Assembly (NCBI GenBank): GCA_018903055.1 | Contig: JAHIPW010000151.1 | Coordinates: 1-11,566, forward strand | Length of the DNA stretch: 11,566 nt | Direction: 5' to 3' | Origin: DRGV01 sp018903055 [NCBI: bacterium] | Lineage (GTDB): Bacteria; UBP18; UBA7526 | Shown: piece after piece, positions 1 through 11,566 of the stretch | How the letters are laid out: each line of letters starts with the position of its first letter | Position numbering within the stretch: the stretch's first letter is position 1 | Notes under the pieces: generated by a model | What the model was told of the DNA's origin: nothing | Databases searched by the model: none | Seen by the model: the letters and a program-made list of their open reading frames with translations, nothing else | Program-made: the position numbers and the translations under genes

Positions 1-33
1 AGAAAAATTTTTTATAAAAGGGCAATCACCCCA

Positions 34-858
34 TTACAGACGAACCGCCACTCCCTTTTTCTTTAAATACTCTTTGGCCTCTCTTATAGAATACTCTCTA
101 AAGTGAAATATGGAAGCCGCTAATACCGCATCTGCCTTTCCTTCTGTCAGAGCCTGATATAGGTGTTCCAAATTTCCCGCCCCTCCCGAGGCGATGACTG
201 GAATGCTTACCGCTTCTGATATCTTTCTGGTCAGTTCTAAGTCGTATCCTTTCTTTGTTCCATCACAGTCCATACTCGTTAGAAGAATCTCCCCGGCTCC
301 CAGTTTATCCACCCTTTTTGCCCATTCCAGAACGTCCCATCCGGTAGGAGTTCTTCCCCCATTAATGTAGACCTCCCATTTTGGTTTGCCTGTTCGCCGG
401 TTTGCCAGTTTGCCTGTTTTTAATCGGGTAACTGGGGGACGGGGTAACGGGGTAACTATTCGTTTGGCATCTATGGCAACCACAATGCATTGACTTCCAA
501 ATTTCTTAGCAGCTTCAGTTACTAAGCTGGGGTTCTTTACTGCTGCGGTATTGATTGATACCTTATCTGCTCCTACCTTTAATAATTTTCTTATATCCTC
601 GAGGTCCCTGATTCCTCCTCCTACAGTCAAAGGCATGAAGATCTTTTCTGCGGTTCTTCTAACTACCTCAATAATGATATCCCTTTTCTCAAGCGAGGCG
701 GTAATATCAAGAAAGACCAGTTCGTCCGCTTTTTCCTTATCGTATATTGCCCCTATTTCCGCTGGGTCCCCAGCATCCCTCAAATTGACAAACTTTACCC
801 CCTTAACTACCTTTCCCTCATCGACATCCAAACAAGGAATGATTCTCTTGGCCAGCAT
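34..858 (-). CDS. hisF: Imidazole glycerol phosphate synthase, cyclase subunit HisF, with an in-frame repeat insert
   Basis: HisF uses ammonia delivered by HisH to convert PRFAR to imidazole glycerol phosphate and AICAR in histidine synthesis; it is a cytosolic TIM barrel. The 274-residue protein starts with the family signature ([15 protein letters not shown]), and both catalytic aspartates are visible at D11 and D130 (VVAIDAKR). [17 protein letters not shown] and IASGGAG phosphate-binding loops are present. The usual length is about 250-258. The excess sits at residues about 134-160, between AIDAKR and KWEVY, where relatives have only a few residues (see the repeat at 383-456). The ATG is supported by AGGAGT at 868-873, nine bases upstream. 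It follows hisH with a 145-base gap; both form one heterodimer. hisA is not seen between them. The identification is certain; whether the insert alters activity is unknown. Confidence 0.97.
383..456 (-). repeat. Two runs of degenerate 8-bp tandem units inside hisF
   Basis: Read on the coding strand, units at 456-425 are GTTACCCC, GTTACCCC, GTCCCCCA and GTTACCCG. After the spacer ATTAAA come AACAGGCA, AACTGGCA, AACCGGCG and AACAGGCA at 418-387, then AACC. The period is 8, so the reading frame shifts through the units, yet the whole stretch stays open and in frame. It encodes a basic, proline-rich loop after catalytic D130 that ordinary HisF lacks. The unit AACTGGCA recurs in the hisH insert. 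Confidence 0.9.
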
Positions 859-1003
859 CTTTTTTCAACTCCTGTAATAAGAAAATAGGGATTACAGTGA
901 TATGAATTCGAGATTACAGCAATATTAAATAAAAGCGTAGAATTCTAATCCCATTGGTGATGTATCGCCATAATCATTTAACAATCATTGTAATCAAAAG
1001 GTT
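859..1003. other. hisH-hisF spacer with short direct and inverted repeats
   Basis: This AT-rich 145-base spacer has no convincing ORF. It holds GATTACA-type words at about 891 and 914 and their complement TGTAATC near 988. Two EcoRI-like GAATTC palindromes occur, and GGGATTA near 888 could pair with TAATCCC near 946. The arrangement looks like a decayed inverted-repeat element. The hisF ribosome binding site is at 868-873. No promoter is clear enough to call. Confidence 0.4.
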
Positions 1004-1654
1004 CTATAATTCTCCAAAATTCTTAAGCATCCTCAAACCCAATTCTTGACTCTTCTCAGGATGAAACTGAGTCCCATAGATATTATCTTTACTGACTATA
1101 GAGGCAAACTCCAGGCCATATTCTGTAGTGGCGGTAATTACGCTTTTATCATCTGGTTCTACATAGTAAGAGTGAACGAAATAGAAATAGGAGCCATCCG
1201 GAATCCCTTTTAAAACGGACTTTGGTCCGTCCAGCTGTCTTTGCCAGTTAGACGGATGGACTTCGGACTTTGGACTTTTTTTAATCTGATTCCATCCCAT
1301 ATGGGGAACCTTCAACCCCTTATTGCTGAAATCAAATCTCTTCACCCTGCCTTTTATGATATTTAGTCCCGTAACCCCTCCTTCTTCGCTCTCCGTAAAG
1401 AGTAACTGTAATCCCAGACAGATACCTAAAAAAGGCTTACCCGTCTCGATAAACCTATAGATAGGATCTATCAAATGGTGTTCTTTAAGGTTGGCTATGC
1501 ACTTTCCAAAGGCTCCCACACCGGGCAAGACTACCTTGGAGGCTTGCAAGACTTTGTCAGGATCGCTGGTGATTAGGGCTTCCTGTCCCACTTTCTGGAA
1601 GGCCTTTTGAACGCTTCTCAGATTCCCCATTCCATAATCAACAATGACAATCAT
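1004..1654 (-). CDS. hisH: Imidazole glycerol phosphate synthase, glutaminase subunit HisH, with an in-frame repeat insert
   Basis: HisH is a class I glutamine amidotransferase that hydrolyses glutamine and channels ammonia to HisF. In 216 residues the triad is complete: nucleophile C79 in GICLGLQ, then H198 and E200 in QFHPEKS. The oxyanion-strand motif LPGVGAFG is at residues 43-50, and VPHMGWNQI and DGSYFYFVHSYYV are typical. Relatives are about 200 long; the surplus of roughly 18 residues lies at about 126-146, between WNQI and VLKGIPDG, in repetitive DNA. The ATG has a modest upstream GGTGGAAAGAG. The gene is 220 bases downstream of the second FMN protein and just upstream of hisF, its partner. 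The family call is certain; the insert looks tolerated because everything else is conserved. Confidence 0.97.
   Translation of the reverse strand: MIVIVDYGMGNLRSVQKAFQKVGQEALITSDPDKVLQASKVVLPGVGAFGKCIANLKEHHLIDPIYRFIETGKPFLGICLGLQLLFTESEEGGVTGLNIIKGRVKRFDFSNKGLKVPHMGWNQIKKSPKSEVHPSNWQRQLDGPKSVLKGIPDGSYFYFVHSYYVEPDDKSVITATTEYGLEFASIVSKDNIYGTQFHPEKSQELGLRMLKNFGEL
1217..1278 (-). repeat. 7-bp AAAGTCC words and hairpin inserted in hisH
   Basis: Coding-strand units at 1278-1258 are AAAGTCC, AAAGTCC and GAAGTCC, head to tail. A further AAAGTCC lies at 1223-1217. Between them, 1225-1261 can fold: GTCCGTCC at one end pairs with GGATGGAC at the other (7 of 8 Watson-Crick), with an inner GTCT/AGAC pair. 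The segment adds about 18 residues to HisH without breaking the frame, and contains AACTGGCAAA, also found in the hisF insert. Confidence 0.85.
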
Positions 1655-1664
1655 CTCTTTCCAC

Positions 1665-1682
1665 CACAGATTATCACAGATT
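1665..1682. repeat. CACAGATT words, left flank of inverted-repeat element
   Basis: Two CACAGATT copies lie at 1665-1672 and 1675-1682. They are in opposite orientation to the AATCTGTG copies at 1828-1870, so the 105-bp element at 1692-1796 sits between two inverted sets of the same word. The edge of this repeat touches the weak hisH ribosome binding region. Confidence 0.65.
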
Positions 1683-1691
1683 GTTTATTCA

Positions 1692-1796
1692 CCCCGTTAG
1701 AGACCTAATAAAATACCGTTTTAAATAGTCCTACTATAGTTTTTCTAAATTACAAGTTGCTACAAGGAACCTTACCAGAATAAGTCTCTAACGGGG
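1692..1796. mobile_element. 105-bp MITE-like element with perfect 13-bp terminal inverted repeats
   Basis: CCCCGTTAGAGAC at 1692-1704 is the exact reverse complement of GTCTCTAACGGGG at 1784-1796. The interior is AT-rich, has no ORF of note and includes ACTATAGT. This is the layout of a non-autonomous miniature inverted-repeat element. Flanking target duplication is at most two bases (CA on each side) and is not secure. A folded non-mobile structure is the alternative. The element lies in the 220-base spacer between the second FMN gene and hisH. Confidence 0.6.
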
Positions 1797-1806
1797 CAGG
1801 GATGGT

Positions 1807-1870
1807 CACAGATCACGGATCTTTCCTAATCTGTGATCTGTGTAAATCTGTCTTAAATCTGTGTGAATCG
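1807..1870. repeat. AATCTGTG-word repeat with a 14-bp hairpin
   Basis: Arms at 1807-1820 and 1829-1842 pair over 14 positions with one G-T wobble around an 8-base loop (words CACAGATCAC and GTGATCTGTG). Further degenerate AATCTGT/AATCGGTG words run on to 1870, ending just before the stop of the second FMN gene at 1875. There is no T-run after the stem in the direction of transcription, so it is not called a terminator. Confidence 0.65.
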
Positions 1871-1874
1871 GTGT

Positions 1875-3476
1875 CTAAAAGTCGAGGATCTCCTCAAAAC
1901 TTTCCCGATCAAAGTTCTCAATGGTCGGTATTCCCGTAACTCTACTGGCATGTTCCGAGAGGCTCGCGAGGTCGTTTCTATCTATCAGATTTAGCTTCCA
2001 TTTTCTGCAGCCAGCTAAGAGCTGCTGTAGGCCCACTCCGATCCTGTCTGCTAAGAAGGTATAGACCCCCACCGCTGCCCAGGCGAACTCCTTCCCTAAG
2101 ATATCCCCATACTTCTTGGTCAGTTCTGTAGTACAGATGAAGAACTTCTCCGGTTCTGTCCCATACTCCTGAACAAACTTAGCCGGCAGATCCTCTGCCT
2201 CAGCCAGTTTAACGAAGTAGTCGGCCTTCATGGCGGCACATAATGGAGCCCGGGCCATAGCGATGGCCTTAACATAGGGGCCGTTCCCATCCCCTAAGTT
2301 ACTCATGGCTATTGCCTTGAAGATCTGGGTCTCATTGATGAATCCTCCGGCCAGGGCAATATCCGGGATATACTTCTTCTTCTCCTTCAATATCTTGATC
2401 CCTTCCAGGACCTGGGCCAAGAGATGGATGGTAGGGGTGGAGCACTCCTGCATCATGGGGACCGGGCTCATTCCCGTTCCCCCTCCCGCACCATCAAAGG
2501 TAAGGAGGTCTATCTTGGCCTGTGAGGCGCACTTCAGGGTAAAGGCCACTACTGCCGGGTTATAGGCCCCGGTTTTCAAGAAGACTTTTTTGGCTCCCTT
2601 CTTCCTTAAATCTTCCACATCCTCAACAAAGGTTTTCTCCTCCGGCATTCCCACCCGGGAGTGTCGCTCGAAGGTCTTGAAGACCCCTTTCTTAAAGGCG
2701 TTCTGGATGGCCTTATCTGTGGGATCGGGGTGGACGATGTATCCCCTCTTCTTGAGCATCTTGGCATACTCTAAGTCAGAGATCCTCACCTCTCCCCCGA
2801 TGGCCTTCGCTCCCTGGCCCCACTTCCTTTCAATGATATTCACCCCTAACTTCTTGATGGCGTAGAGGTCCACCCCGGTTCTTATATCTTCAACATTGGT
2901 CTGGACTCCCACATCCCCATACTTTCCGTCCCAGTATCTGCGATAATTCTTTACCCGGAACTCCAACTCTTTGGAATACTTCACCTTTCCCTTGCTATCA
3001 TACTTCGCGGTCCTATCCATACCGCAGACATTCTCCCCGACGATGTCGATAATGCCTGCCATGGCTGACCCCACGGATAAACCTTCCCAGTTCTTCCGAG
3101 CAACATCAGTAGAGCCCAATCCAGGAATCTTTATGGGAATCCTTATGGGGATGCCCCCGGCCTTGCTTCTCACATCCACATTAGGGAAGATGGCCTTATC
3201 CGAATCCGGAGCAATCCCCTTTGTTCCCCGCACCTCGGTCATGATCTGGAAGTGAGACCAATCCAGTCCATAGTCCTTATTTGAGGCCGCGGTTGATTCT
3301 CCATACCTCTCTGGAGAGGGATACAAGACCTCCCTTCCCCGAAAAGCGCTCTTTCCCACCTCACAGAGCACAGTGCACTCCCGGATACAGATGGGGCACA
3401 TCCCGCTTAAAAGACTGACATCCTTTACCCGGGTCGTGGTCCCTGTGGTTGATCGGGCATTCTCTGAGATACCCAT
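1875..3476 (-). CDS. Divergent FMN-binding glutamate synthase-like protein with N-terminal Cys4 motif
   Basis: This 533-residue protein belongs to the glutamate synthase FMN-domain superfamily. The barrel core is recognisable: KWGQGAKAIGGE (about 218-229), TFDGAGGGTGMSP (326-338) and IALAGGF (373-379) match the FMN/substrate loops of the second synthase gene here (IGQGAKPGIGG, ALDGFRGGTGAAP, IIAGGGI). It lacks the C-x5-C-x4-C [3Fe-4S] ligands where they would fall; only C413 remains there. Instead the N-terminus has C27-x2-C30-x3-C34-x3-C38, a likely metal or [4Fe-4S] site. ATG at 3476 has AGGAGG six bases upstream. It lies 104 bases downstream of glnA, implying a role in glutamine/glutamate metabolism, but the reaction cannot be read from sequence; it may be a glutamate synthase variant or another amino-transferring oxidoreductase. 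Confidence 0.85.
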   Translation of the reverse strand: MGISENARSTTGTTTRVKDVSLLSGMCPICIRECTVLCEVGKSAFRGREVLYPSPERYGESTAASNKDYGLDWSHFQIMTEVRGTKGIAPDSDKAIFPNVDVRSKAGGIPIRIPIKIPGLGSTDVARKNWEGLSVGSAMAGIIDIVGENVCGMDRTAKYDSKGKVKYSKELEFRVKNYRRYWDGKYGDVGVQTNVEDIRTGVDLYAIKKLGVNIIERKWGQGAKAIGGEVRISDLEYAKMLKKRGYIVHPDPTDKAIQNAFKKGVFKTFERHSRVGMPEEKTFVEDVEDLRKKGAKKVFLKTGAYNPAVVAFTLKCASQAKIDLLTFDGAGGGTGMSPVPMMQECSTPTIHLLAQVLEGIKILKEKKKYIPDIALAGGFINETQIFKAIAMSNLGDGNGPYVKAIAMARAPLCAAMKADYFVKLAEAEDLPAKFVQEYGTEPEKFFICTTELTKKYGDILGKEFAWAAVGVYTFLADRIGVGLQQLLAGCRKWKLNLIDRNDLASLSEHASRVTGIPTIENFDRESFEEILDF

Positions 3477-3482
3477 TTTAAT

Positions 3483-3488
3483 CCTCCT
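3483..3488 (-). promoter_or_regulatory. Shine-Dalgarno AGGAGG of the second FMN gene
   Basis: AGGAGG ends six bases before the ATG at 3476 and fixes that start. It lies next to the 7-bp repeat array, suggesting that glnA and the FMN gene may be translated independently. Confidence 0.85.
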
Positions 3489-3514
3489 TATACATTGATT
3501 TGTTGTTTCATCAT

Positions 3515-3564
3515 TTACCGTTTACGGTAAAAAAACAGTAAACCGTAAACCGTTAACCGTAAAC
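3515..3564. repeat. 7-bp TAAACCG array with inverted copies, glnA-FMN spacer
   Basis: On the plus strand TTTACCG and TTTACGG are followed, after an A-run, by TAAACCG, TAAACCG, TTAACCG and TAAAC. GTTTACGGT at 3520-3528 can pair with ACCGTAAAC at 3542-3550 or at 3556-3564, so two alternative 9-bp stems exist. In transcription direction the array follows the glnA stop by 17 bases and includes a T7 run (3529-3535 region), so weak termination or mRNA 3'-end formation is possible but not shown. Confidence 0.75.
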
Positions 3565-3580
3565 TTTTTTTGATCTGCGT

Positions 3581-4909
3581 TTATAAATACTGTTCCACTT
3601 CCCAGGCGGTTACCTGGAGTAGGAAATCCTTCCACTCCTGCTTCTTCGCCCTGACAAAGTATTCCGTTATATGCTCCCCCAAGGCAGAGGTCAGAACCCT
3701 ATCCTTCTCAAACTCTTCAACAGCCTCTTTCAAATTGGTCGGTAAGGTTTCAATCTTTAGGGAAGCCAGCTTTAAATCGTCGAAGTGATAGACATTCTCC
3801 TCCACCGCCTTGGGAGATCGGAGGTTCCGCTTGATGCCGTCCAACCCGGCGGCTAACATAGAGGCAAAGGCGAGATAGGGGTTGCAGGAGGGATCGGGAC
3901 AGCGTAACTCCAAACGGGCACCGGCTGCTCCTTTACTTTTGGTTACCTGGGGTACGCGAATCAGTGCCGAGCGATTGATGCGCCCCCAACAGATGTAGAC
4001 CGGGGCTTCATAACCTGGAACCAGACGTTTATAGGAGTTGACTGTGGGAGCCACGATGGCCACCAAAGATCGGGCATGTTTCATCTGCCCGGCTAAGAAC
4101 TGGTAAGCCACTGGTGATAACCCATACTCGTCTTTCGCAGAATAGAAAGCGTTGGAGCCCTCTTTATCAGCTAAACTCTGATGGGTATGCATCCCAGAGC
4201 CATTGATGCCGAAGATGGGCTTAGGCATGAAGGTCACCTTCAGTCCCGTCCCTGAGGCATGGGTTTCCAGGGCTTGTTTCAGAGAGAGGATAGAATCAGC
4301 GATCCTCAGGGCATCATCATAGAAGAGGTCGATCTCATGCTGACCGTGGCTTACCTCGTGATGATAGGACTCGCATCTTATCCCCATCTCCTGGAGGCTT
4401 CTGACCGTATCCTGACAGATCTTTACCGCCCTACTCTGTACCGCTAAGTCGAAATAGCCTCTCTCATCATGAGGAACAAGATTCGGTTCCTGGCCTTCGT
4501 CAAGAAGAAAGAATTCAACCTCCGGTCCCACCTGATAGGTATAGCCTAACTTCTTTGCCTCTGCTATGGTTCGCTTCAGACATCCCCGGGGATCCCCTGG
4601 GAATGGCTTCTCTTCGGGGGTGTAGATATCGCAGATCATCTGGGCGGCTCTTCCTGCTTCGCCTGACCAGGGCAGGATGACAAAGGTATCTATATCAGGC
4701 CGGAGAAGCATATCGGATTCACAGATTCTGGCAAATCCTTCAATAGATGAACCATCGAACCAGACGCCGTGGGCTAAGGCATCTTCTAACTGAGCAGCCT
4801 GGATAGTGACCTTTTTGGGAGTCCCGGCGATATCCGTGAAGAGTAGATATAGAAACTCCACCTTCTCCCTCTCAATTACCTCTTTCAATCTCTTTACGTC
4901 CTTTTTCAT
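3581..4909 (-). CDS. glnA: Type I glutamine synthetase
   Basis: Makes glutamine from glutamate, ammonia and ATP; forms a cytosolic dodecamer in this family. Counting from ATG 4909 the protein has 442 residues, the usual GSI-alpha length. Signatures in order: WFDGSSIEGFARICESDM (50-67), metal ligands E130/E132 in GPEVEFF, E185 and E192 in HHEVSHGQHEID, ATP-site INGSGMHTHQS (235-245, H241), PGYEAPVY with R295/E301, and LELRCPDPSCNPYLAF. The C-terminus follows the alpha type (GEHITEYF, WEVEQYL), and the tyrosine motif adenylylated in GSI-beta (NLYDLP-like) is absent, so control is probably feedback or transcriptional. A longer reading from 4987 adds 26 unconserved residues and ignores the strong AGGAGG at 4915-4920, so the shorter start is preferred. 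It sits between the amidohydrolase and the second FMN gene. Confidence 0.97.
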   Translation of the reverse strand: MKKDVKRLKEVIEREKVEFLYLLFTDIAGTPKKVTIQAAQLEDALAHGVWFDGSSIEGFARICESDMLLRPDIDTFVILPWSGEAGRAAQMICDIYTPEEKPFPGDPRGCLKRTIAEAKKLGYTYQVGPEVEFFLLDEGQEPNLVPHDERGYFDLAVQSRAVKICQDTVRSLQEMGIRCESYHHEVSHGQHEIDLFYDDALRIADSILSLKQALETHASGTGLKVTFMPKPIFGINGSGMHTHQSLADKEGSNAFYSAKDEYGLSPVAYQFLAGQMKHARSLVAIVAPTVNSYKRLVPGYEAPVYICWGRINRSALIRVPQVTKSKGAAGARLELRCPDPSCNPYLAFASMLAAGLDGIKRNLRSPKAVEENVYHFDDLKLASLKIETLPTNLKEAVEEFEKDRVLTSALGEHITEYFVRAKKQEWKDFLLQVTAWEVEQYL

Positions 4910-4914
4910 CTCAA

Positions 4915-4920
4915 CCTCCT
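4915..4920 (-). promoter_or_regulatory. Shine-Dalgarno AGGAGG deciding the glnA start
   Basis: AGGAGG lies five bases before ATG 4909. It supports the 442-residue glutamine synthetase over the upstream start at 4987. Confidence 0.85.
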
Positions 4921-4949
4921 TCTTCTTTCTTCTCCCCGCAATGGCAGAT

Positions 4950-4987
4950 AACACTTTGCGTGTTTGTGAAGTGCCGAAGGCACACAA
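4950..4987. repeat. Pair of small hairpins between amidohydrolase and glnA
   Basis: AACAC at 4950-4954 pairs with GTGTT at 4960-4964. GTGCC at 4971-4975 pairs with GGCAC at 4979-4983 around a 3-base loop, with TTGT/ACAA flanks extending the stem past a bulge. On the transcript the second loop reads UUC. The structure begins about ten bases after the amidohydrolase stop and has no following U-run, so it is not a classic terminator. RNA processing or a decayed repeat are options. Confidence 0.6.
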
Positions 4988-4996
4988 TCTTTCCCC

Positions 4997-5653
4997 TTAC
5001 TTTTGTAACAGCTGTATGACGTCATTGGCGGTTGTCACAAAGGCAAACCCGAAAGCGAGATTGAGCAAACTCGCTAGATGCATTTCCTCATTAACACTTC
5101 CCGTACCATCAGCGAGGAAGAACACTTTGTAGTCTCTGTAATAGGCATCCCGAGTGGTAGATTCGCAACATAAGTTGGTCATAATGCCCGAGATTACAAG
5201 GTCTTCTACCTTTAGACATCGGAGCACTGTTTCTAAATCCGTGTTGTAGAATGCTGAATAGCGATGTTTGAAAATTACCTTCTCGTTCGGGAGCGGTGCA
5301 ATATCGTCAGACACTTTACTTTCCACACTCCCTTCAACGCACATCCCTTCCCACCACCATCCCATAATACCAGCATCTATGCGGTCAGGATGATGGGCAT
5401 GGCAGGTGTAAATTACTGGACGGTTGGCTTCGCGAAATGCTTGAATAAGTTGTTTCAGAGTTGGAAGAATAGCCAATCCACCGCAAGTGAAGGTTGGCGA
5501 AGCGGGATCTAAGAAAAATCGCTGCATATCAATAACGAGAAGGGCCACTTTGTCTATATTAAGTTGCATCTGATGTTGATTGAAAGGTTTAATCTTTTCA
5601 AGCCAGAGTTGTGCCTTCGCTCCAATAGATTCTGGTGTCACATACGGTTCCAT
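4997..5653 (-). CDS. Isochorismatase-family cysteine amidohydrolase
   Basis: A 218-residue member of the isochorismatase/nicotinamidase-like superfamily, whose cytosolic enzymes hydrolyse amide or carbamoyl C-N bonds, usually releasing ammonia. The catalytic triad is visible: D42 in LLVIDMQ, K129 in VIFKHRYSAF and C162 in GIMTNLCCEST. The H85/H87/H88-PD-...-WW region (residues 85-101) resembles the N-carbamoylsarcosine/biuret/ureidoacrylate group more than nicotinamidase, whose D-x-H-x3-H zinc motif is not seen. ATG 5653 is chosen because AGGAGG at 5660-5665 is six bases away; a TTG two codons upstream would abut the AGGAGG. The gene lies 17 bases after the GXGXG gene and 87 before glnA. Its context suggests ammonia supply to glutamine synthetase; the substrate is unknown. 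Confidence 0.88.
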   Translation of the reverse strand: MEPYVTPESIGAKAQLWLEKIKPFNQHQMQLNIDKVALLVIDMQRFFLDPASPTFTCGGLAILPTLKQLIQAFREANRPVIYTCHAHHPDRIDAGIMGWWWEGMCVEGSVESKVSDDIAPLPNEKVIFKHRYSAFYNTDLETVLRCLKVEDLVISGIMTNLCCESTTRDAYYRDYKVFFLADGTGSVNEEMHLASLLNLAFGFAFVTTANDVIQLLQK

Positions 5654-5659
5654 CTTCAA

Positions 5660-5665
5660 CCTCCT
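5660..5665 (-). promoter_or_regulatory. Shine-Dalgarno AGGAGG deciding the amidohydrolase start
   Basis: AGGAGG is six bases before ATG 5653 but directly abuts the alternative TTG at 5659, so the ATG is the better start. Confidence 0.8.
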
Positions 5666-5670
5666 TTTAA

Positions 5671-6399
5671 TTAGTAGGCATAGAACTTACCGTAAGGCCG
5701 ATAGCTTACCGGCGCTAATTTGGTGAATTTTTTCTTCCTTATTTTTTTGAAGTTGAGATTAAAATCGTGACAATACTCGCCCAAGTATTTATCTAAAATT
5801 TTATCATCTATCTCCGTCCACTTTCGGATGCCGACCTCCCTTCCCAATTGATACTTTTTTACCTTACCCCTGATATAAATAACGCCTCCATGCATCCCAG
5901 AACCCACATAATTACCAATGATGGAACGGTTAGTGGTCAGTCCCAATAATATGATAATCCCACCAGCCATATATTCGCCCAGATAATCTTTAGCCGCGCC
6001 ACCAGCAATCAAGATGGGTAGCAGGTCCTTATAGGCCTTCATATGAATCCCCACCCGATATCCTACATCCCCTAAGATGTATAACCGGCCACCCCGCATC
6101 CCATATCCCAGGACATCCCCGGCATCGCCCCGGACCACAACCTTACCCTGGTTCATGGTGTTTCCAATGGCATCCTGGGCATTTCCCTCTACCTCAATCA
6201 CTGGCCCATCCATAAAGGCCGCCAGATCATTGCCCGGGGTTCCCCGGATGTTAATCCTCACCTCTGCCTTTAATCCAGAGGCAATGTACCTTTGTCCATT
6301 AACGTTGGTTAGAATAATCCTCTCTTTACCTTTGCTGATCGCCCACCGAATCTTCTCGTTTATTCTCCTATGATTCAAGCCCAGACAATCAAATTCCAT
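5671..6399 (-). CDS. Glutamate synthase GXGXG-domain subunit (GltB C-terminal domain as a separate protein)
   Basis: A 242-residue right-handed beta-helix protein matching the C-terminal GXGXG domain of GltB, also related to subunit C of formylmethanofuran dehydrogenase. The repeated G-x-x-G-x-x-x-x-x-G pattern runs through residues about 50-180 (EGNAQDAIGNTM, GDAGDVLGYGMRGG, GGAAKDYLGEYMAGG, IGNYVGSGMHGG). It has no catalytic residues of its own; in GltB this helix is a structural scaffold for the amidotransferase and FMN domains. Its ATG directly follows the TGA of the reductase gene with no gap, and GAGGTG upstream serves as ribosome site, so the two are translationally tied. The N-terminal 40 residues precede the helix and resemble the lead-in of stand-alone archaeal-type versions. 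The last 60 residues are lysine-rich. Confidence 0.93.
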   Translation of the reverse strand: MEFDCLGLNHRRINEKIRWAISKGKERIILTNVNGQRYIASGLKAEVRINIRGTPGNDLAAFMDGPVIEVEGNAQDAIGNTMNQGKVVVRGDAGDVLGYGMRGGRLYILGDVGYRVGIHMKAYKDLLPILIAGGAAKDYLGEYMAGGIIILLGLTTNRSIIGNYVGSGMHGGVIYIRGKVKKYQLGREVGIRKWTEIDDKILDKYLGEYCHDFNLNFKKIRKKKFTKLAPVSYRPYGKFYAY

Positions 6400-7677
6400 T
6401 CAACGCACCTCTAAAGGAAGAACCATCTTCGCTCGAAATTCCTTGGGAACATAGATATAGCCGAAGTTTTCCTCTAATATCTCATCTTTGAAGTTGGTCA
6501 CATCTAATCGATCCTTGATCAACCCAACGATAATCCCCGCCCGATCAATATCGCCTACCAAGATGGCCCCAATGATTTGTCCCTTCCTTAAAACAATCTT
6601 TTTATAAACCTTCTTCTTAGGATCAGATTTGGTCAATATCTCATACCCCTTTTCTTCGGCACTCAATCCCGCAGTAATTATCGGCAGGCCGAAGACCTCG
6701 ATGGAATTTAAAATCAAACCGCCCCTATACTCCATCCTCTTTCCTGCCATGTTGGAACCAGCCACCCTCCCTTGTTGAAAGGCCAGGGGCCAGACGGGGA
6801 TCGGTCTCTTCCTACCGTAGAGAAAGTCATAGGCCTCCACTACATCGCCCGCCGCATAAACCTCCTTTACAGAGGTCTGCATAAACCTATCTACCAAAAC
6901 ACCTCTTTTGGCCTTAAGGGCGGTTCCTTTAACTAAATCGAGATTGGGGGTTACTCCAATGGCCACAACCACTAAATCACAATCCACCTCTCCACTTTTT
7001 CCAAGTATCACTCTTTCAACCTTTTTCCCTTTTCCCCTGATCTCCAAGACAGTGTCGTTAATAATTAATCTGATCCCTTTCTCCTTGAGGTGGCGGTGAA
7101 TAATCTTTGAACCATCTTTATCTAATATAGCAGGAAGAATCTGAAACGCTTGCTCCACTATCGTTACTTTAAGGCCCAGACTCTTAAGGCCCTCAGCGGC
7201 CTTTAGCCCAATCATTCCTCCCCCAATGACCACAGCGCTTTTTGCCTTCTTGATAGTCTTCGCCAGACGTTTCACCTCATCCCAGGTGGTAAAGGTGAAG
7301 ACATCCTTCTTCTCTATTCCTTTGACCGAGGGAAGGATGGGTTTACTTCCGCAGGTCAATAATAACTTGGTATATGGGATTCTTTTTCTATCTTCCAAAA
7401 CTATCTTTTTCTCCTTAGGCTTAATGGCTATCACCCTTTTCCCCAAAATAGTCTGGACCTTATTTCTTTGGTAAAAGTCCTTTTTTCGATAGAATACCTT
7501 CTCAATGGTTACCTTGCCTTCTAAAAAGTGAGAAACAAGGGACCGAGAATAGGCACGATATGGTTCCTGACTAATTACTGTAATGGGTACGGTTTTATCC
7601 ACTTCCCGAATGGCTTCTATGGCCGCTATGGCTGCTACCGAATTGCCAACGATTAAATAATTCCTACTCTTCCTCAT
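6400..7677 (-). CDS. NAD(H)-dependent FAD oxidoreductase, likely electron-input subunit of glutamate synthase
   Basis: A 425-residue two-dinucleotide-fold flavoprotein of the pyridine nucleotide-disulfide oxidoreductase superfamily, in the NirB N-terminal / NADH oxidase / rubredoxin reductase group. The FAD Rossmann motif is at residues 9-20 (IVGNSVAAIAAI), the NAD(P) motif at 149-160 (VVIGGGMIGLKA) with an acidic E175 at the end of the next strand (VTIVEQ), which favours NADH over NADPH, and the second FAD motif at 273-279 (VYAAGDV). There is no redox CxxC or conserved active-site disulfide. It overlaps the polyferredoxin gene by 14 bases, so electrons probably run NADH to FAD to 4Fe-4S protein to the FMN synthase. 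It replaces classical GltD, which is built differently (fused iron-sulfur N-terminus). Confidence 0.9.
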   Translation of the reverse strand: MRKSRNYLIVGNSVAAIAAIEAIREVDKTVPITVISQEPYRAYSRSLVSHFLEGKVTIEKVFYRKKDFYQRNKVQTILGKRVIAIKPKEKKIVLEDRKRIPYTKLLLTCGSKPILPSVKGIEKKDVFTFTTWDEVKRLAKTIKKAKSAVVIGGGMIGLKAAEGLKSLGLKVTIVEQAFQILPAILDKDGSKIIHRHLKEKGIRLIINDTVLEIRGKGKKVERVILGKSGEVDCDLVVVAIGVTPNLDLVKGTALKAKRGVLVDRFMQTSVKEVYAAGDVVEAYDFLYGRKRPIPVWPLAFQQGRVAGSNMAGKRMEYRGGLILNSIEVFGLPIITAGLSAEEKGYEILTKSDPKKKVYKKIVLRKGQIIGAILVGDIDRAGIIVGLIKDRLDVTNFKDEILEENFGYIYVPKEFRAKMVLPLEVR

Positions 7678-8104
7678 AGACTAAGGCCTCGTTGGGACAT
7701 TTGGCCACACAGACCGGGATATCCTCATCTGGACAGAGATCACACTTTGTGGCCACCTTCTTCTCCCGCTCATCACGCAGGATAACGCCAAAGGGGCAGA
7801 CCATGATACACATCCAGCAGCCCACACATCTATCCTCATCGCAGGTTACTGCTCCTGATTTCTTATCCCGCCCCATGGCTCCGGTCAGGCAGGCCTCGAT
7901 GCACGGGGCCTCCTCACAGTGTCGGCATTGAAGGGCAAAGGAGATCGGTCCTTTCTCCTCAACAATCAAGCGGGGCAGGACTCTGGGGAATTCTTCTTTA
8001 TAAGCCTTGATGATCTTCTTTGATTTGGAATGGGCTACCAGACAATGAATCTCACATAGTCGGCAACCCATGCAATATTCTTCCTTAACGTATATCTTCT
8101 TCAT
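7664..8104 (-). CDS. Four-cluster [4Fe-4S] polyferredoxin (CooF/HycB type)
   Basis: A 146-residue iron-sulfur electron carrier. Cysteines fall into four sets: C11/C14/C17/C21; C60/C63/C68/C72; C93/C96/C99/C103; and C121/C124/C132/C136 followed by P-N-E-A. This is the interleaved 4x[4Fe-4S] pattern of CooF, HycB and DmsB-like subunits. C88 is an additional cysteine. No signal peptide or membrane segment is present, so it is cytosolic. AGGA at 8113-8116 is eight bases from the ATG. It overlaps the reductase gene by 14 bases and lies 174 bases after the FMN synthase gene, implying that it carries electrons from the reductase to the FMN core. Confidence 0.93.
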   Translation of the reverse strand: MKKIYVKEEYCMGCRLCEIHCLVAHSKSKKIIKAYKEEFPRVLPRLIVEEKGPISFALQCRHCEEAPCIEACLTGAMGRDKKSGAVTCDEDRCVGCWMCIMVCPFGVILRDEREKKVATKCDLCPDEDIPVCVAKCPNEALVYEEE

Positions 8105-8112
8105 CGATAAAA

Positions 8113-8275
8113 TCCTAAATTCGAAGCACTAAATTCTAAACAATATCTAAATTCAAATGCTCTAAACAATGTTTTGATTAATTCGCCTTTGGCGAAGAAA
8201 TCTTCAGCGAAGCTGAACATTTTCGGTCATTGGAAATTCGGATTTGTTTCGGATTTCGGATTTCGTGCTTAGAGT
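8113..8275. repeat. Large imperfect palindrome with GGATTTC words and two central 6-bp hairpins
   Basis: This fills most of the 174-base spacer. GAAGCAC at 8123-8129 mirrors GTGCTT at 8265-8270, and the outer ~55-base arms are imperfect reverse complements (CTAAATTC-type words left, GGATTTC repeats at 8251-8264 right). In the centre are two perfect hairpins with 3-base loops: TTCGCC/GGCGAA at 8182-8196 and TTCAGC/GCTGAA at 8203-8217. It has the look of a dispersed intergenic repeat. A plus-strand reading frame through it has no protein-like character. Confidence 0.75.
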
Positions 8276-8278
8276 TTT

Positions 8279-9799
8279 TTATAAGGACTCCCCGGCTGGT
8301 TTTACTTCCAGAAGTTTAAGTTCGGTCTCTGTCAGGTCAATTCCTCTCAGGCGTAATCTATTGCCCCTCAGGGATTCAATGGCGTTAATCCCCATCCCTC
8401 CCAGCATCTCCTTTATCTCCAGGCTCCAAGCCCTTAAGAGATTGACCAATCTCTCAGTAGCAATATCAGGATTTATCCTCTTCACCAGATAGGGATCCTG
8501 GGTAGCGATGCCCCAGTTGCACTTTCCGGTATAGCACTTTTGACACATATGACATCCCACAGCAATCAAAGCCGCAGTTCCGATATAAACCGCATCTGCT
8601 CCCAAGGCGATGGCTTTAACTACATCGGAGCTATTACGTATCCCTCCACCAGCGATGATGGAAGCCTGGTTTCTAATCCCCTCTGCCCGCAACCTACTAT
8701 CCACAGCCGCCAAGGCTAACTCAATGGGAATCCCTACGTTGTCCCGAATCCTGGTTGGCGCGGCGCCCGTTCCTCCCCGAAAACCATCTAGGGCGATGAT
8801 ATCCGCCCCGGCTCTAACCATCCCACTGGCAATGGCTGACGAGTTATGTACCGCAGCAATCTTGACCATGATGGGCTTTTTATAACATGTCGCTTCTTTT
8901 AAAGCATAAATGAGCTGGCTTAAATCCTCAATGGAGTAGATATCATGATGAGGGGCAGGGGAGAGGGCATCCGTTCCCTCAGGAATCATCCTGGTCTCAG
9001 AGATGGATTGGCTGACCTTCTCTCCTGGAAGATGACCACCGATGCCCGGCTTTGCCCCCTGGCCAATCTTGATCTCTATAGCGGCGGCGGCATTCAAGTA
9101 ATCTGGATGAACTCCGAAGCGGCCGGATGCTACCTGGACGATGGTATTCCCTCCAAAGCGGTAGAGATCTCGGTGAAGCCCCCCTTCTCCAGTATTGCAG
9201 AAGGTATTCATCGTCCGGGCCGCCTGGGCCAAGGCTAAAGAAACATTATAACTGATCGCTCCATAGGACATGGCAGAAAAGAGGATGGGAACCTCTACCT
9301 TTAACTGAGGAGCGATCTCTGTCTTTAAGCGTGGTTTACCCTTTTTCGTCTCTATCTTTAGTCGGTCTGGCTTACGACCCAAAAAGGTGCGTAACTCCAT
9401 GGGTTCCCTTAAAGGATCGATGGATGGATTGGTCACCTGACTGGCGTCCAGAAGGAGGTGATCCCAATAGATGGGGTAATCCTTATCGCTTCCCATCCCA
9501 GAGAGTAGTACCCCGCCCGTCTCAGACTGCTTGAAGATATCCTTAATGACCTGCTCGGGCCAATTGGCATTTCTTCTAAATTCCTGGGGATACCTGATAA
9601 TGGTCAAGGCCTGGGTGGGGCAGAGTGTGGCACACCTATGACATCCCACGCAGCGTGAATCATCACTTGCTACCTTGCCCTCTTCCAGATCATAGGAGTG
9701 GACCTCAAAGGCACATTGCCTGACACAGACCTCACACTGGATACACTTTTCCTCATCCCGAATGACCCTAAATTCTGGGGCGAGAAGGCTCATCCTCAT
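8279..9799 (-). CDS. Glutamate synthase FMN/[3Fe-4S] core subunit with N-terminal 2x[4Fe-4S] ferredoxin domain
   Basis: Reduces the 2-iminoglutarate formed from 2-oxoglutarate and glutamine-derived ammonia to glutamate. The 506-residue protein begins with a two-cluster ferredoxin domain (C19/C22/C25/C29 and C50/C53/C56/C60), then the GltB-type FMN barrel from about 110: SAMSYGAIS (175-183), CNTGEGG (201-207), KIGQGAKPGIGGHLPG (244-259), IALDGFRGGTGAAP (335-348) and IIAGGG (381-386). The GltB [3Fe-4S] ligands C416-x5-C422-x4-C427 are present and followed by GIATQDP. Fusion of a ferredoxin to the FMN core is characteristic of archaeal-type glutamate synthases. Its ATG overlaps the TGA of the amidotransferase gene (ATGA), coupling their translation; ATG 9793 two codons later is an alternative start. 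Confidence 0.95.
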   Translation of the reverse strand: MRMSLLAPEFRVIRDEEKCIQCEVCVRQCAFEVHSYDLEEGKVASDDSRCVGCHRCATLCPTQALTIIRYPQEFRRNANWPEQVIKDIFKQSETGGVLLSGMGSDKDYPIYWDHLLLDASQVTNPSIDPLREPMELRTFLGRKPDRLKIETKKGKPRLKTEIAPQLKVEVPILFSAMSYGAISYNVSLALAQAARTMNTFCNTGEGGLHRDLYRFGGNTIVQVASGRFGVHPDYLNAAAAIEIKIGQGAKPGIGGHLPGEKVSQSISETRMIPEGTDALSPAPHHDIYSIEDLSQLIYALKEATCYKKPIMVKIAAVHNSSAIASGMVRAGADIIALDGFRGGTGAAPTRIRDNVGIPIELALAAVDSRLRAEGIRNQASIIAGGGIRNSSDVVKAIALGADAVYIGTAALIAVGCHMCQKCYTGKCNWGIATQDPYLVKRINPDIATERLVNLLRAWSLEIKEMLGGMGINAIESLRGNRLRLRGIDLTETELKLLEVKPAGESL

Positions 9800-10887
9800 G
9801 ATAACCCTTCCTTCAATTCCCCGATAGCTGGTTCACCCGCTGCCGGAGACCAGATCTCGTCTGGCCTGGGACAGACCTCTCTAATCCCACACTCCTCACT
9901 GGCTAAATAAAATGTCTCTCCCTTCCTGGCAGCCATGAGGGGTCTCAATTTGACCCTATCGTTCAAGCCCAGCATCCCCCGGCTGTATCCAATAATCAAA
10001 GAGGAGGGGCCATTAATCAAAGCGCTGCCATAGACCATCCTAATAGCCTCCATAACCCTTCTTGTCTCTTCAGGCATACGCTCTATCTCCGACCAGAATG
10101 GTGCCGCCAGGATACGACAAACCATCTCTATCGGTAAACCATGACGACGTAGAAGGAGATCAAAGAGATAGAGGACTGCCTCAGAATCGGTCTGAAGCAT
10201 TAACTGGTAGCCAAAGCCCTCCAGGTAACGCTTATTGATCCCATAAGAAGAGATTTCTCCATTATGTACCAGAGTCCAATCCAAAAGGCCAAAGGGATGG
10301 GCCCCTCCCCACCAGCCAGGGGTATTGGTAGGAAACCTACCGTGAGCCGTCCAGAGATAGGCTTCATACTCTTCAATTCTATAGAATTTAGCGATATCTT
10401 CAGGGAATCCAACCCCTTTGAAAACCCCCATGTTCTTTCCCGAGGAGACTACAAAGGCACCCCTTATTCGGGCATTAATGTGCATTACTATCTTCACCAC
10501 AATGTCATTTTCGGTCAAGTCATAATACAGTTTCTTTATCTCCGGTTTAACCTGCAAAAAATATCTCCAGAGAAGTGGTCGTTGGGTCACCTCTTCCACC
10601 GGCCTGGTAGGAATGATCTCCTCCTCCACGATCTCAAAGCTCTCTTTCAAATGATCCTCAGTGTTTCTCTTTGCCTCTTCATCGTCATACATAAGGTGGA
10701 AAGAGTAATCGTCCTTATGGCGGGGATAGATTCCATAGCCCGCAAAACCACCCCCCAAACCATTGGCCCGTTCATGCATCACAGAGATGGAGCGGATGAT
10801 TCTATTTCCAGACATCCGCTTCCCATTTTCATTCAATATTCCAGCCACGCTACAGCCTGAGGGAATACGCGGAAATATTCTATTCAT
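9796..10887 (-). CDS. Glutamate synthase class II glutamine amidotransferase subunit (GltB N-terminal domain as a separate protein)
   Basis: Hydrolyses glutamine and feeds ammonia to the FMN synthase subunit. In 363 residues the Ntn-hydrolase features are C12 (SGCSVAGI) as the probable nucleophile, AHGRFPTNT with R184 (181-189), WTLVHNGEISSY with N209/G210, and QTDSEAV with D234. The region from GGGFAGYGIYP (45-55) is typical of archaeal-type versions. The eleven residues ahead of C12 must be removed to expose the catalytic amine, as with the GltB propeptide. The ATG at 10887 has AAAGGGG four bases upstream; no other start so close to C12 is evident. It overlaps the FMN gene by four bases and lies 51 bases after trpG. 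Confidence 0.93.
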   Translation of the reverse strand: MNRIFPRIPSGCSVAGILNENGKRMSGNRIIRSISVMHERANGLGGGFAGYGIYPRHKDDYSFHLMYDDEEAKRNTEDHLKESFEIVEEEIIPTRPVEEVTQRPLLWRYFLQVKPEIKKLYYDLTENDIVVKIVMHINARIRGAFVVSSGKNMGVFKGVGFPEDIAKFYRIEEYEAYLWTAHGRFPTNTPGWWGGAHPFGLLDWTLVHNGEISSYGINKRYLEGFGYQLMLQTDSEAVLYLFDLLLRRHGLPIEMVCRILAAPFWSEIERMPEETRRVMEAIRMVYGSALINGPSSLIIGYSRGMLGLNDRVKLRPLMAARKGETFYLASEECGIREVCPRPDEIWSPAAGEPAIGELKEGLS

Positions 10888-10938
10888 AGAACCCCTTTAA
10901 ATCTTTAAATTCTCTATTTTCTTTACTACCTTCTCTAT

Positions 10939-11566
10939 TTACGCGTTTAAAAAATTCTTCAATAACTTCTTCCCAATACCCGTTAGTACGGATTCTGGAT
11001 GGAACTGAACTCCTTCTACTTTATATTTTTTGTGACGGATGCCCATAATCTCTTTTTCTTTCGTCCGGGCGGTTACTGTGAGGCAACCAGGTAAAGATTG
11101 GGAATCAACAATAAGGGAGTGATATCTGGTAGCAATGAATGGTTTAGGAAGTCCTCTGTAGATCCCCTTTCCCTGGTGATAGATCTCAGAGGTCTTACCA
11201 TGCATGAGCCTCTTTGCTCGTACAATCTTTGCTCCAAAGACCTCTGCGATACACTGATGTCCCAGACAGACTCCCAGAATAGGGACTTTAGAAGCAAAAT
11301 GTTTTATGACTTCTTTTGAGATTCCGGCCTCCTTTGGCCTTCCTGGCCCAGGGGAGATGACGATTTTGTCTGGCTTTAATCTCTCAATCTCTTTAATGGT
11401 AATCTTGTCATTGCGAAATACCTGTAAATCTTCTCCTCGCCCATTGGGGCGAAGCTCGCCTCCCGCCCTTTTGGGCGAGGCTCGCCCCTGGCGGCTGGCG
11501 GCCAGTTCTCCCAGATATTGGACCAGATTATAAGTAAATGAATCATAATTATCAATAATTAGAATC
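10939..11566 (-). CDS. trpG: Anthranilate/aminodeoxychorismate synthase glutamine amidotransferase (TrpG/PabA), 5' edge cut, with in-frame insert
   Basis: Class I glutaminase that supplies ammonia to TrpE (tryptophan) or PabB (folate); the sequence does not separate these roles. The frame reads from the window edge: the last base is the G of a probable ATG, followed by [21 protein letters not shown]. The full protein would be 209 residues against the usual 187-195. Triad: C101 in GVCLGHQ, H190 and E192 in [17 protein letters not shown] (72-82) is the oxyanion region, and H150-S151 in YHSL is conserved. About 22 extra residues (23-44), between LGEL and [10 protein letters not shown], come from GC-rich hairpin DNA (11437-11502). 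The shorter downstream readings in this region are fragments of this gene. trpE or pabB, if present, would be expected beyond the right edge. Confidence 0.95.
11437..11502 (-). repeat. GC-rich chained hairpin insert in trpG
   Basis: GGGCGA and TCGCCC arms alternate several times: GGGCGA-gcc-TCGCCC, CGCCC-aaaa-GGGCG, GGCGA-gct-TCGCC and TCGCCC-caat-GGGCGA on the coding strand. The 66 bases add 22 arginine/glycine-rich residues in frame. The base composition is sharply higher in G+C than the surrounding gene, and 3- to 4-base loops resemble the mini-hairpins at 8182-8217 and 4971-4983. Confidence 0.88.

What the first reader, a model, noticed from the sequence alone, without database searches (positions are those of the whole stretch)
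1..11566. Three separate coding inserts in one window, all in glutamine-amidotransferase complexes
TrpG, HisH and HisF each carry an 18-24-residue basic repeat-encoded loop, whereas the GOGAT and GlnA genes do not. HisF and HisH inserts share the 10-mer AACTGGCAAA (HisF 401-410, HisH 1240-1249), and spacers contain the same kinds of 7-8-bp words and 3-base-loop hairpins. This hints at a genome-wide family of short repeats that tolerates or exploits coding sequence. Whether the bias to channelling enzymes is meaningful or chance cannot be judged from one window.
Basis: inference. Interest (0 to 1): 0.85.

Follow-up and report, generated by a model that had tools for sequence, protein, structure and literature searches.

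The report
Mobile short repeats inside bacterial genes
An uncultured bacterium carries short repeated and hairpin-forming DNA words not only between its genes but also, in frame, inside many essential genes, so some of its enzymes bear extra repeat-encoded loops; the three inserts first noticed are examples of this genome-wide habit and not something special to one enzyme class.

Summary
In detail: HisF, HisH and TrpG carry in-frame extra loops (net about +23, +15, +22 residues) that orthologs lack. Each insert recurs elsewhere: HisH 94% over 52 bp in a spacer, TrpG 97% over 68 bp in another gene of the same genome, HisF 84% over 65-73 bp inside rsmA of a sister genome and its ortholog in a second; none in 1.29 Mb of control loci. 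Arrays of 7-8-bp words occur at about 2 per kb in spacers and 0.08-0.11 per kb in coding DNA; 77 of 1075 sampled genes hold one, 44 of them away from the gene ends, against 14 of 1389 controls. A MITE-like class with CCCC...GGGG ends and 4-bp target duplications also enters genes; one family folds as a covarying three-way junction. At several fixed sites orthologs carry different words. A bias to glutamine-amidotransferase complexes is not supported. Best reading: dispersed short repeats land in or overwrite unconstrained loops, and selection keeps copies that stay open and in frame. It works like Rickettsia palindromic elements and MITEs; no Rfam family matches in the stretches scanned. Mover and exact mechanism are unknown.

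The parts
34..858 (-). hisF with an in-frame insert
   Evidence: Pfam PF00977 3e-88; PDB alignment; D11 and D130 invariant in alignment A1 (catalytic role recalled)
379..456 (-). HisF insert, aa about 135-160: two runs of 8-bp words, (GTTACCCC)n and (AACTGGCA)n, around an A-rich centre
   Evidence: about 84% over 65-73 bp with an insert inside rsmA of G001 and its G003 ortholog, and spacer matches; AF2: coil, pLDDT blocks 73/54/62 between strands E125-134 and E160-165, mean pLDDT 90.6; not hairpin-like as DNA, z +0.72
1004..1654 (-). hisH with an in-frame insert
   Evidence: C79, H198, E200 invariant (triad recalled)
1211..1282 (-). HisH insert: AAGTCCA/AAGTCCG words with complementary arms by eye; contains AACTGGCAAA
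   Evidence: 94.2% over 52 bp with spacer L180:1389-1440, E 7e-17; weak fold, z -1.31
10939..11565 (-). trpG (first codon beyond the contig end) with an in-frame insert
11437..11502 (-). TrpG insert: GC-rich hairpins with GCCGCCA words
   Evidence: 97% over 68 bp with gene L179:862-2364, E 1e-28; fold z -3.55
1692..1796 (.). MITE-like element CCCCGTTAGA...TCTAACGGGG in the spacer upstream of hisH (long form; target duplication not intact)
   Evidence: R1 model 23.8 bits, E 0.00034; DNA fold z -3.68
1836..1874 (.). ATCTGTGTAA-type array in the same spacer
3533..3564 (.). AAACCGT array with an inverted arm in a spacer
   Evidence: AAACCGT is the joint commonest array word in the G000 sample (6 of 107)
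8247..8265 (.). TTTCGGA array in a spacer

Best explanation
The three inserts are individual copies of short dispersed repeats that crowd this genome family. Two kinds overlap and nest. (1) Arrays of 7- or 8-bp words, some with a complementary arm downstream. (2) Very short palindromes, of which one large class has CCCC...GGGG ends and 4-bp target-site duplications like a MITE; one of its families folds as a covarying three-way junction. Shown: arrays occur at about 2 per kb in spacers, both kinds occur in frame in many unrelated genes, and some are present in one relative and cleanly absent from another. Inferred: the palindromes move by a transposase acting in trans that was not found; the arrays arise and are homogenised by replication slippage and are also copied between sites; copies that land in flexible, unconstrained loops and stay open and in frame are kept as near-neutral passengers, while others are removed by selection.
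For: Matches of each window insert elsewhere in the family samples, 0 in 1.29 Mb of controls. Spacers with arrays: 48 of 124, 32 of 67, 83 of 207 (G000, G001, G003) against 7 of 107 in controls and about 0.1 from shuffles. Genes with arrays: 22 of 329, 11 of 166, 44 of 580 against 22 of 1425 named-locus genes; counting only arrays at least 20 residues from either end, 44 of 1075 against 14 of 1389, after setting aside L106 and L126, which look like family members and have 4 of 36. 14 insertions of 15-260 bp in 327,753 compared coding bases of the family against 5 in 547,251 control bases. 4-bp duplication plus 6-bp inverted ends: 24, 3 and 22 found against 0.2, 0.4 and 1.4 from shuffles; 4 in controls (shuffle 1.4). 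Three-way junction: 39 doubly changed cells against 12.6 in shuffles, 0 of 500. Words stop-free on a given strand: 45-61% of spacer arrays, 81-91% of coding arrays on the sense strand. DnaN, GyrB and asparagine-synthase-like inserts fold as hairpins, z -2.83, -3.59, -3.94.
Against: No autonomous element with these ends in the samples, and no Y1 transposase or reverse transcriptase in G000-G004. 13 of 14 family insertions are multiples of 3, but so are 4 of 5 control insertions: this shows selection for frame, not a special preference. The contrast of 17 of 19 (in genes) against 6 of 30 (outside) is partly built in, because genes were called on the same sequence. At protein level the family excess is modest: 15 of 87 insertions repeat-like against 7 of 147 in controls, where neither DnaN nor GyrB was flagged. 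33 of the 77 array genes carry the array within 20 residues of an end, where my gene caller may have chosen the wrong start. The HisF insert is not a hairpin, and no clean target duplication was established for the three window inserts. Controls are not free of arrays in genes.
Confidence: 0.8

Rival explanations
1. The inserts are adaptive loops in ammonia-channelling complexes, selected for partner binding.
For: Three amidotransferase-complex genes in one window carry them; TrpE of G003 also has an array (one search names it, one search finds the array).
Against: Most named genes with inserts or arrays do other chemistry. GlnA and the main synthase gene show no gain. The HisF insert is modelled as low-confidence coil. 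Loop words differ wholesale between orthologs at several sites, against conserved sequence function.
Confidence: 0.04
2. Old family-specific protein loops whose repeat look is low-complexity chance.
For: The HisF loop after AIDAKR is length-variable in many phyla: 28 of 110 HisF copies in the fetched loci are 8 or more residues longer than a reference with the loop cut out, all at this spot.
Against: HisF of G002-G005 lacks this insert; closely similar DNA occurs in spacers and unrelated genes; codon-shuffled family genes give 0 arrays.
Confidence: 0.03
3. Assembly or binning artefact of a metagenome-assembled genome (85% complete, 191 contigs).
For: Draft genome; repeats can cause misassembly.
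Against: The same rsmA insert sits in two genomes, G001 and G003; window inserts are shared with other contigs of G000; frames stay open through the inserts. The TrpE array shared by G003 and L126 is weak evidence because L126 may be the same genome.
Confidence: 0.05
4. Purely local slippage: each array grew in place from a chance duplication, with no copying between sites.
For: Unit words are very diverse (71 distinct of 107 in G000). At several sites orthologs have arrays of different words and similar length, as expected of unconstrained DNA under continuous homogenisation.
Against: Similarity of 65-73 bp between the HisF insert and rsmA inserts, 94% over 52 bp for HisH and 97% over 68 bp for TrpG needs copying. 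The CCCC class has target duplications.
Confidence: 0.15

Closest known systems
Rickettsia palindromic elements (RPE; known here through passages of the review PMC10969869; a primary paper, PMC186582, was not held)
   Same: Repeats inserted in frame into unrelated metabolic genes, adding peptides to the proteins.
   Different: The review gives RPEs as about 150 bp, ten families, with a conserved peptide. Here elements are mostly 25-140 bp, word content is very diverse, and 7-8-bp arrays are a main component.
Bacterial MITEs, including intragenic ones: RU-1/2/3 elements of enterobacteria (PMC2759123, abstract and outline seen), Coxiella QMITE1/2 (PMC5896051, abstract and outline seen)
   Same: Inverted ends, target duplications, no transposase gene, many copies, open frames within annotated genes.
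   Different: Shorter (RU 103-168 bp, QMITE 150-400 bp in the abstracts); a covarying three-way junction; no parent insertion sequence found.
TAACTGA heptamer repeats of Beggiatoaceae, cyanobacteria and Bacteroidetes (PMC4679880, abstract and passages seen)
   Same: Direct repeats of a 7-bp word, mainly intergenic; [quoted passage not shown]
   Different: One word there, related words rarely repeated; here 71 distinct words in 107 arrays and frequent presence inside conserved genes.
REP palindromes, GTAG/CGTC classes (PMC3733652, start of abstract in a search listing)
   Same: Short palindromes in many copies.
   Different: No Y1 transposase of the REP-associated kind (kind recalled) in G000-G004; 4-bp duplications at the ends.
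Coding palindromes of nematomorph mitochondria (PMC6649704, abstract and outline seen)
   Same: Inverted repeats inside functional protein genes.
   Different: There both arms encode conserved residues; here the repeats encode extra loops.

Membership tests
MITE | terminal inverted repeats | tested here: met
   CCCC...GGGG class; CCCCGTTAGA family 20 copies in G000, backward control 0
MITE | target-site duplication | tested here: met
   4-bp, 49 cases in family samples against about 2.0 from shuffles; not established for the three window inserts
MITE | empty sites in relatives (mobility) | tested here: met
   e.g. TGAA[CCCCGCCC...GGGCGGGG]TGAA in G000 L180:2410, absent from the G003 ortholog
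MITE | related autonomous insertion sequence | tested here: inconclusive
   none in the samples; only about a third of G000 was sampled
Rickettsia palindromic element | in-frame insertion in unrelated genes | tested here: met
Rickettsia palindromic element | about 150 bp with a conserved peptide per family | tested here: not met
   mostly 25-140 bp; only the CCCCGTTAGA family was seen to have a recurrent peptide, NPVR...SNGV
Rickettsia palindromic element | sequence homology to RPE families | not tested
   no RPE sequence was compared
Single-word heptamer repeats (TAACTGA type) | one word dominates | tested here: not met
   71 distinct words of 107
REP with RAYT transposase | Y1 transposase in the genome | tested here: not met
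   PF01797 without match in G000-G004 (draft genomes), found in 5 of 14 named control genomes
Rfam RNA families | covariance-model match at gathering score | tested here: not met
   only three tRNAs in 10 sources holding the window and elements
Intein or intron | removed from protein or RNA | not testable with these tools
   inserts are 15-25 codons, far below recalled intein or group I/II intron sizes; no RNA data

The most novel reading that the evidence does not exclude
An active process copies 7-8-bp-word arrays and covarying hairpin elements over any unconstrained DNA, including loops of essential proteins, and from time to time replaces the whole word array at a fixed site by another word while roughly keeping length and frame, as seen in PurH (two sites), PrmC, TrpE, LpxK and, by eye, the small glutamate synthase subunit. 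The genome would carry a continuous sequence-overwriting system that rewrites protein loops.
Probability: 0.2. Interest if true: 0.88.

Novelty: new variant of a known kind. Interest (0 to 1): 0.62.

Why it matters
The published cases of mobile repeats in frame inside bacterial genes that I met are few (RPE, enterobacterial RU elements, QMITE). Here 77 of 1075 sampled genes carry repeat arrays, 44 of them internally, including translation, metabolism and cell-envelope genes, and word content differs between orthologs at fixed sites. That makes loop sequence evolution directly measurable, offers a natural insertion scan of permissive protein sites, and would mislead annotation and structure work if read as functional domains. 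The three-way-junction family also occurs in genomes of other families, so its spread can be traced.

Tried and rejected
Glutamine-amidotransferase bias: rejected after naming genes with inserts. Y1 transposase or reverse transcriptase as the mover: no match in G000-G004. Full-length insertion sequence with the same ends: only one 771-bp pair in G003, which I read as two separate short elements around two genes. Rfam: nothing but three tRNAs. Old-loop hypothesis for HisF: the loop is length-variable (28 of 110 HisF copies), but the DNA of ours is repeat-derived. My automatic protein-level test was weak: 15 of 87 against 7 of 147; insertions over 50 residues were dropped there and boundaries are imprecise, so I relied more on DNA-level empty sites. 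Of the 14 insertions, ten look repeat-like by eye; the others are proline-rich, lysine-rich or short duplications. One of the 14 is not a multiple of 3 (+62 bp, L192:1079); it lies in the C-terminal tail of a gene I take to be gyrA (recalled, no family search); one of the 5 control insertions is also not a multiple of 3. Two of 19 in-gene rows are not multiples of 3: one ORF without ortholog, one 18-bp match that looks like chance. The word table counts pair rows: 8 different word, 4 same word, 10 without array in the ortholog, 18 terminal arrays not scored; one 'different' row (rsmA) compares two parts of one element and PrmC and TrpE each count twice, so distinct sites with changed words there are PurH (2), PrmC, TrpE and LpxK; the glutamate synthase site was seen by eye and its G003 side did not pass the array test. 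Idea that all three window inserts are hairpins: not borne out for HisF, weak for HisH. Literature: the listings showed no paper on this lineage or on multi-word heptamer arrays in frame; the library lacks most subscription journals. Control loci came from a HisF scan; L106 and L126 among them look like members of the same family, so control counts that include them are if anything too high.
Full report
What was checked. The window is contig C145 of a draft genome (G000; 1,085,295 bases, 191 contigs, 85% complete, 3% contaminated). Its main genes lie on the minus strand: hisF, hisH, a glutamate-synthase-like gene, glnA, an isochorismatase-like gene, separate glutamate synthase modules, an oxidoreductase, a ferredoxin, and trpG, whose first codon lies off the contig (some names are recalled from the translations). 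Among 60 genomes listed, G000 has one same-genus and four same-family relatives; the rest are only 'same domain'. The nearest named HisF is from an Omnitrophota record (70%); the lineage itself was not named.

The three inserts are real. Against solved structures and orthologs, HisF gains about 23 residues after AIDAKR, HisH about 15 after the GWNQ segment, TrpG 22 after the first helix. Residues taken as catalytic (recalled) are invariant in the alignments: HisF D11 and D130, HisH C79/H198/E200, TrpG C100/H189/E191. An AlphaFold2 model of HisF (mean pLDDT 90.6) keeps the barrel and shows the insert as coil with block pLDDT 54-73. HisF of G002-G005 has no insert there, though this loop varies in length widely: 28 of 110 HisF copies are 8 or more residues longer than a reference with the loop cut out. 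As single-stranded DNA the TrpG insert folds well (z -3.55), the HisH insert weakly (z -1.31), the HisF insert no better than shuffles (z +0.72).

The inserts are dispersed repeats. A short-word BLAST of the three inserts against samples of G000, G001 and G003 found: HisH insert, 94.2% over 52 bp in a spacer (L180:1389-1440); TrpG insert, 97% over 68 bp inside another gene (L179:862-2364); HisF insert, 15 matches, among them about 84% over 65-73 bp inside a gene of G001 named rsmA and its G003 ortholog, and several spacers. No match at E 0.01 occurred in 1.29 Mb of 80 named control loci. Genome searches had already hinted at this: the HisF insert region matched three places in G001 and one in G003, the TrpG and HisH inserts one other place each in G000.

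Spacers are built of such words. In the G000 sample, match frequency in non-coding DNA is 0.329 at distance 7 and 0.300 at distance 8 against a base level of about 0.265, with weaker peaks at 14 and 21; G001 and the first 286 kb of G003 look alike. Of spacers of 80-300 bp, 48 of 124, 32 of 67 and 83 of 207 hold a strong 7/8-bp array (shuffles: 0.1 in all); controls 7 of 107. Spacers also fold better than shuffles (mean z -3.1, -2.3, -2.8), but this is not special to the family: Omnitrophota controls give -3.5, the other four control groups -0.1 to -1.6.

Coding DNA. By an array test, 22 of 329, 11 of 166 and 44 of 580 genes carry an array, against 22 of 1425 genes of named loci; codon shuffling gives 0, 0, 0 and 7. 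Of the 77 family genes, 44 have the array at least 20 residues from either end and 25 of these have an ortholog in the set; the other 33 are near an end, where my simple gene caller may have picked a wrong start or where the array forms a tail. Named loci other than L106 and L126 have 14 internal cases among 1389 genes; L106 and L126, which look like family members, have 4 among 36. Density is 1.84, 2.63 and 2.11 arrays per kb in spacers but 0.078, 0.114 and 0.094 in coding DNA; words free of stops on a given strand make up 45-61% in spacers and 81-91% on the sense strand in genes. A 7- or 8-bp word read in tandem passes through all three frames, so it is open or closed as a whole; this is the likely filter (inference).

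Which genes. 40 genes were sent to NCBIfam because they carried inserts, arrays or matches to window inserts; 5 gave no family at the thresholds used, one of them a Pfam DUF1385 hit. Named ones include CbiB, CobT, PurH, an asparagine-synthase-like gene, WaaA, a ManC-like gene, IleS, KdsB, RsmE, LpxK (G000); RsmA, PdxA, PrmC, MnmA, DTD, RodA, Mfd (G001); DnaN, GyrB, TrpE, Eno, AhcY, SsnA, LolD, PurH, LpxK, WaaA, PrmC and a small glutamate synthase subunit (G003). Not every one of these inserts passes an automatic repeat test.

Insertion seen at DNA level. Comparing coding sequences with relatives at 70% or more protein identity gave 14 insertions of 15-260 bp in 370 comparisons (327,753 bases); 13 are multiples of 3. 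Controls gave 5 in 719 comparisons (547,251 bases), 4 of them multiples of 3; the frame rule is thus ordinary selection. Clear cases are a 51-bp hairpin in DnaN and a 36-bp one in GyrB of G003 (91% and 92% identity to the empty G000 orthologs; fold z -2.83 and -3.59) and TGAA[CCCCGCCC...GGGCGGGG]TGAA in the asparagine-synthase-like gene of G000 (z -3.94).

A MITE-like class. A scan for a 4-bp direct repeat around 6-bp inverted ends of the form NCCC gave 24, 3 and 22 hits in samples of 340,718, 161,266 and 592,438 unmasked bases (shuffles 0.2, 0.4, 1.4) and 4 in 1,288,937 control bases (shuffle 1.4). Families begin CCCCGTTAGA, CCCCGCACC, CCCCGCCCC, CCCCGCTCC; TTCA/TGAA is the commonest duplication. 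Inside called genes 17 of 19 have a net length divisible by 3, outside or at gene edges 6 of 30 (Fisher p 2e-6; partly circular because genes were called on the same DNA). The CCCCGTTAGA family occurs 20, 6, 4, 7, 4 and 9 times in G000-G005 and in 11 of 235 other genomes, with no match of the backward pattern in any. Twelve copies of 62-72 bp align as a three-way junction with 95.4% of cells paired (shuffles 83.4%), 39 doubly changed cells (shuffles 12.6) and covariation 0.363 (shuffles 0.135; 0 of 500; slid versions at most 0.099). The orientation and the choice of copies were mine, with this fold in mind. A covariance model from these twelve finds matches in 12 of 30 chosen genomes: all six of the family, and G006, G025, G118, G155, G192, G213; none in the 16 genomes without a pattern match, and none in G218 or G091, which had one; at most 150 candidates were scored per genome. 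Nested copies exist: a CCCCGCACC element inside a CCCCGTTAGA element and a GC hairpin inside the rsmA insert of G003. No Rfam family matches in 10 sources except tRNAs. One copy lies in the window spacer at 1692-1796.

Word replacement. For arrays with a family ortholog at 40% or more identity, 12 pair rows have arrays at the same site; 4 share the word, 8 do not; 10 further rows have no array in the ortholog and 18 terminal arrays were not scored. Reading them: PurH site 1 (ACAGGCT in G000, AGTTACC in G003), PurH site 2 (TTACCGA, TGCAAAA), PrmC (GATCCTG/TCCAGCA in G001, AATTACC in G003), TrpE (TTCACCG in G003, AAGGGTT in L106; 92% identity), LpxK (CAAAATT, TCCCAAT), and by eye the small glutamate synthase subunit (AACTCCG in L106; ACTCAAA-like words with a nested hairpin in G003). 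In PurH, TrpE and LpxK the lengths change by about two residues or less, by eye. Two readings remain: word drift with constant homogenisation in unconstrained linkers, or replacement from another array. The data do not decide.

Judgement. The mechanism is best described as MITE-like and RPE-like insertion plus 7-8-bp array turnover, filtered by selection for open frames. Whether the proteins are made with the inserts, and what moves the elements, is not shown.

Noticed in passing
L069:3282-3986, L180:1458-2270: CCCC elements sit at gene starts: the TGAA duplication leaves ATGAA or GTGAA on the left and GGGGTGAA on the right, so the element may supply start codons; L069 reads like EF-Ts (recalled, no search).
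   Followed up: no
L192:927-3614: The last part of a gene that looks like gyrA (recalled) consists of repeat-derived lysine-rich sequence; a 62-bp array gain there is flanked by a direct repeat of about 20 bp.
   Followed up: partly
L075:8647-9291: HisH of a named Omnitrophota record has its own heptamer-encoded insert (GGGGTCC words, peptide VRGPGSGVRG) at a different loop; the same locus has two more genes with such arrays.
   Followed up: no
window 5671-10887: The split glutamate synthase modules find their best matches among fetched loci in Chloroflexota-type records L128 and L132, which may point to horizontal transfer.
   Followed up: no
G118 (pattern and model hits): A genome of another family has 44 strand-matches to the three-way-junction model; the distribution suggests transfer between distant bacteria.
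   Followed up: partly
L245:2297-2354: One IMG/VR viral contig contains a CCCCGTTAGAAGT...ACTTCTAACGGGG element, a possible vector.
   Followed up: no
named L126 and G003: TrpE is identical in L126 and G003; L126 (isolate CSMAG_2709) may be the G003 genome, and L106 (CSMAG_2758) a close relative, which would help name the lineage.
   Followed up: no
HisF loop after residue 133 in many loci: Length hot spot in HisF across phyla; L107, L122 and L133 (Methanoperedens-type records) share a related 21-22 residue insert.
   Followed up: partly
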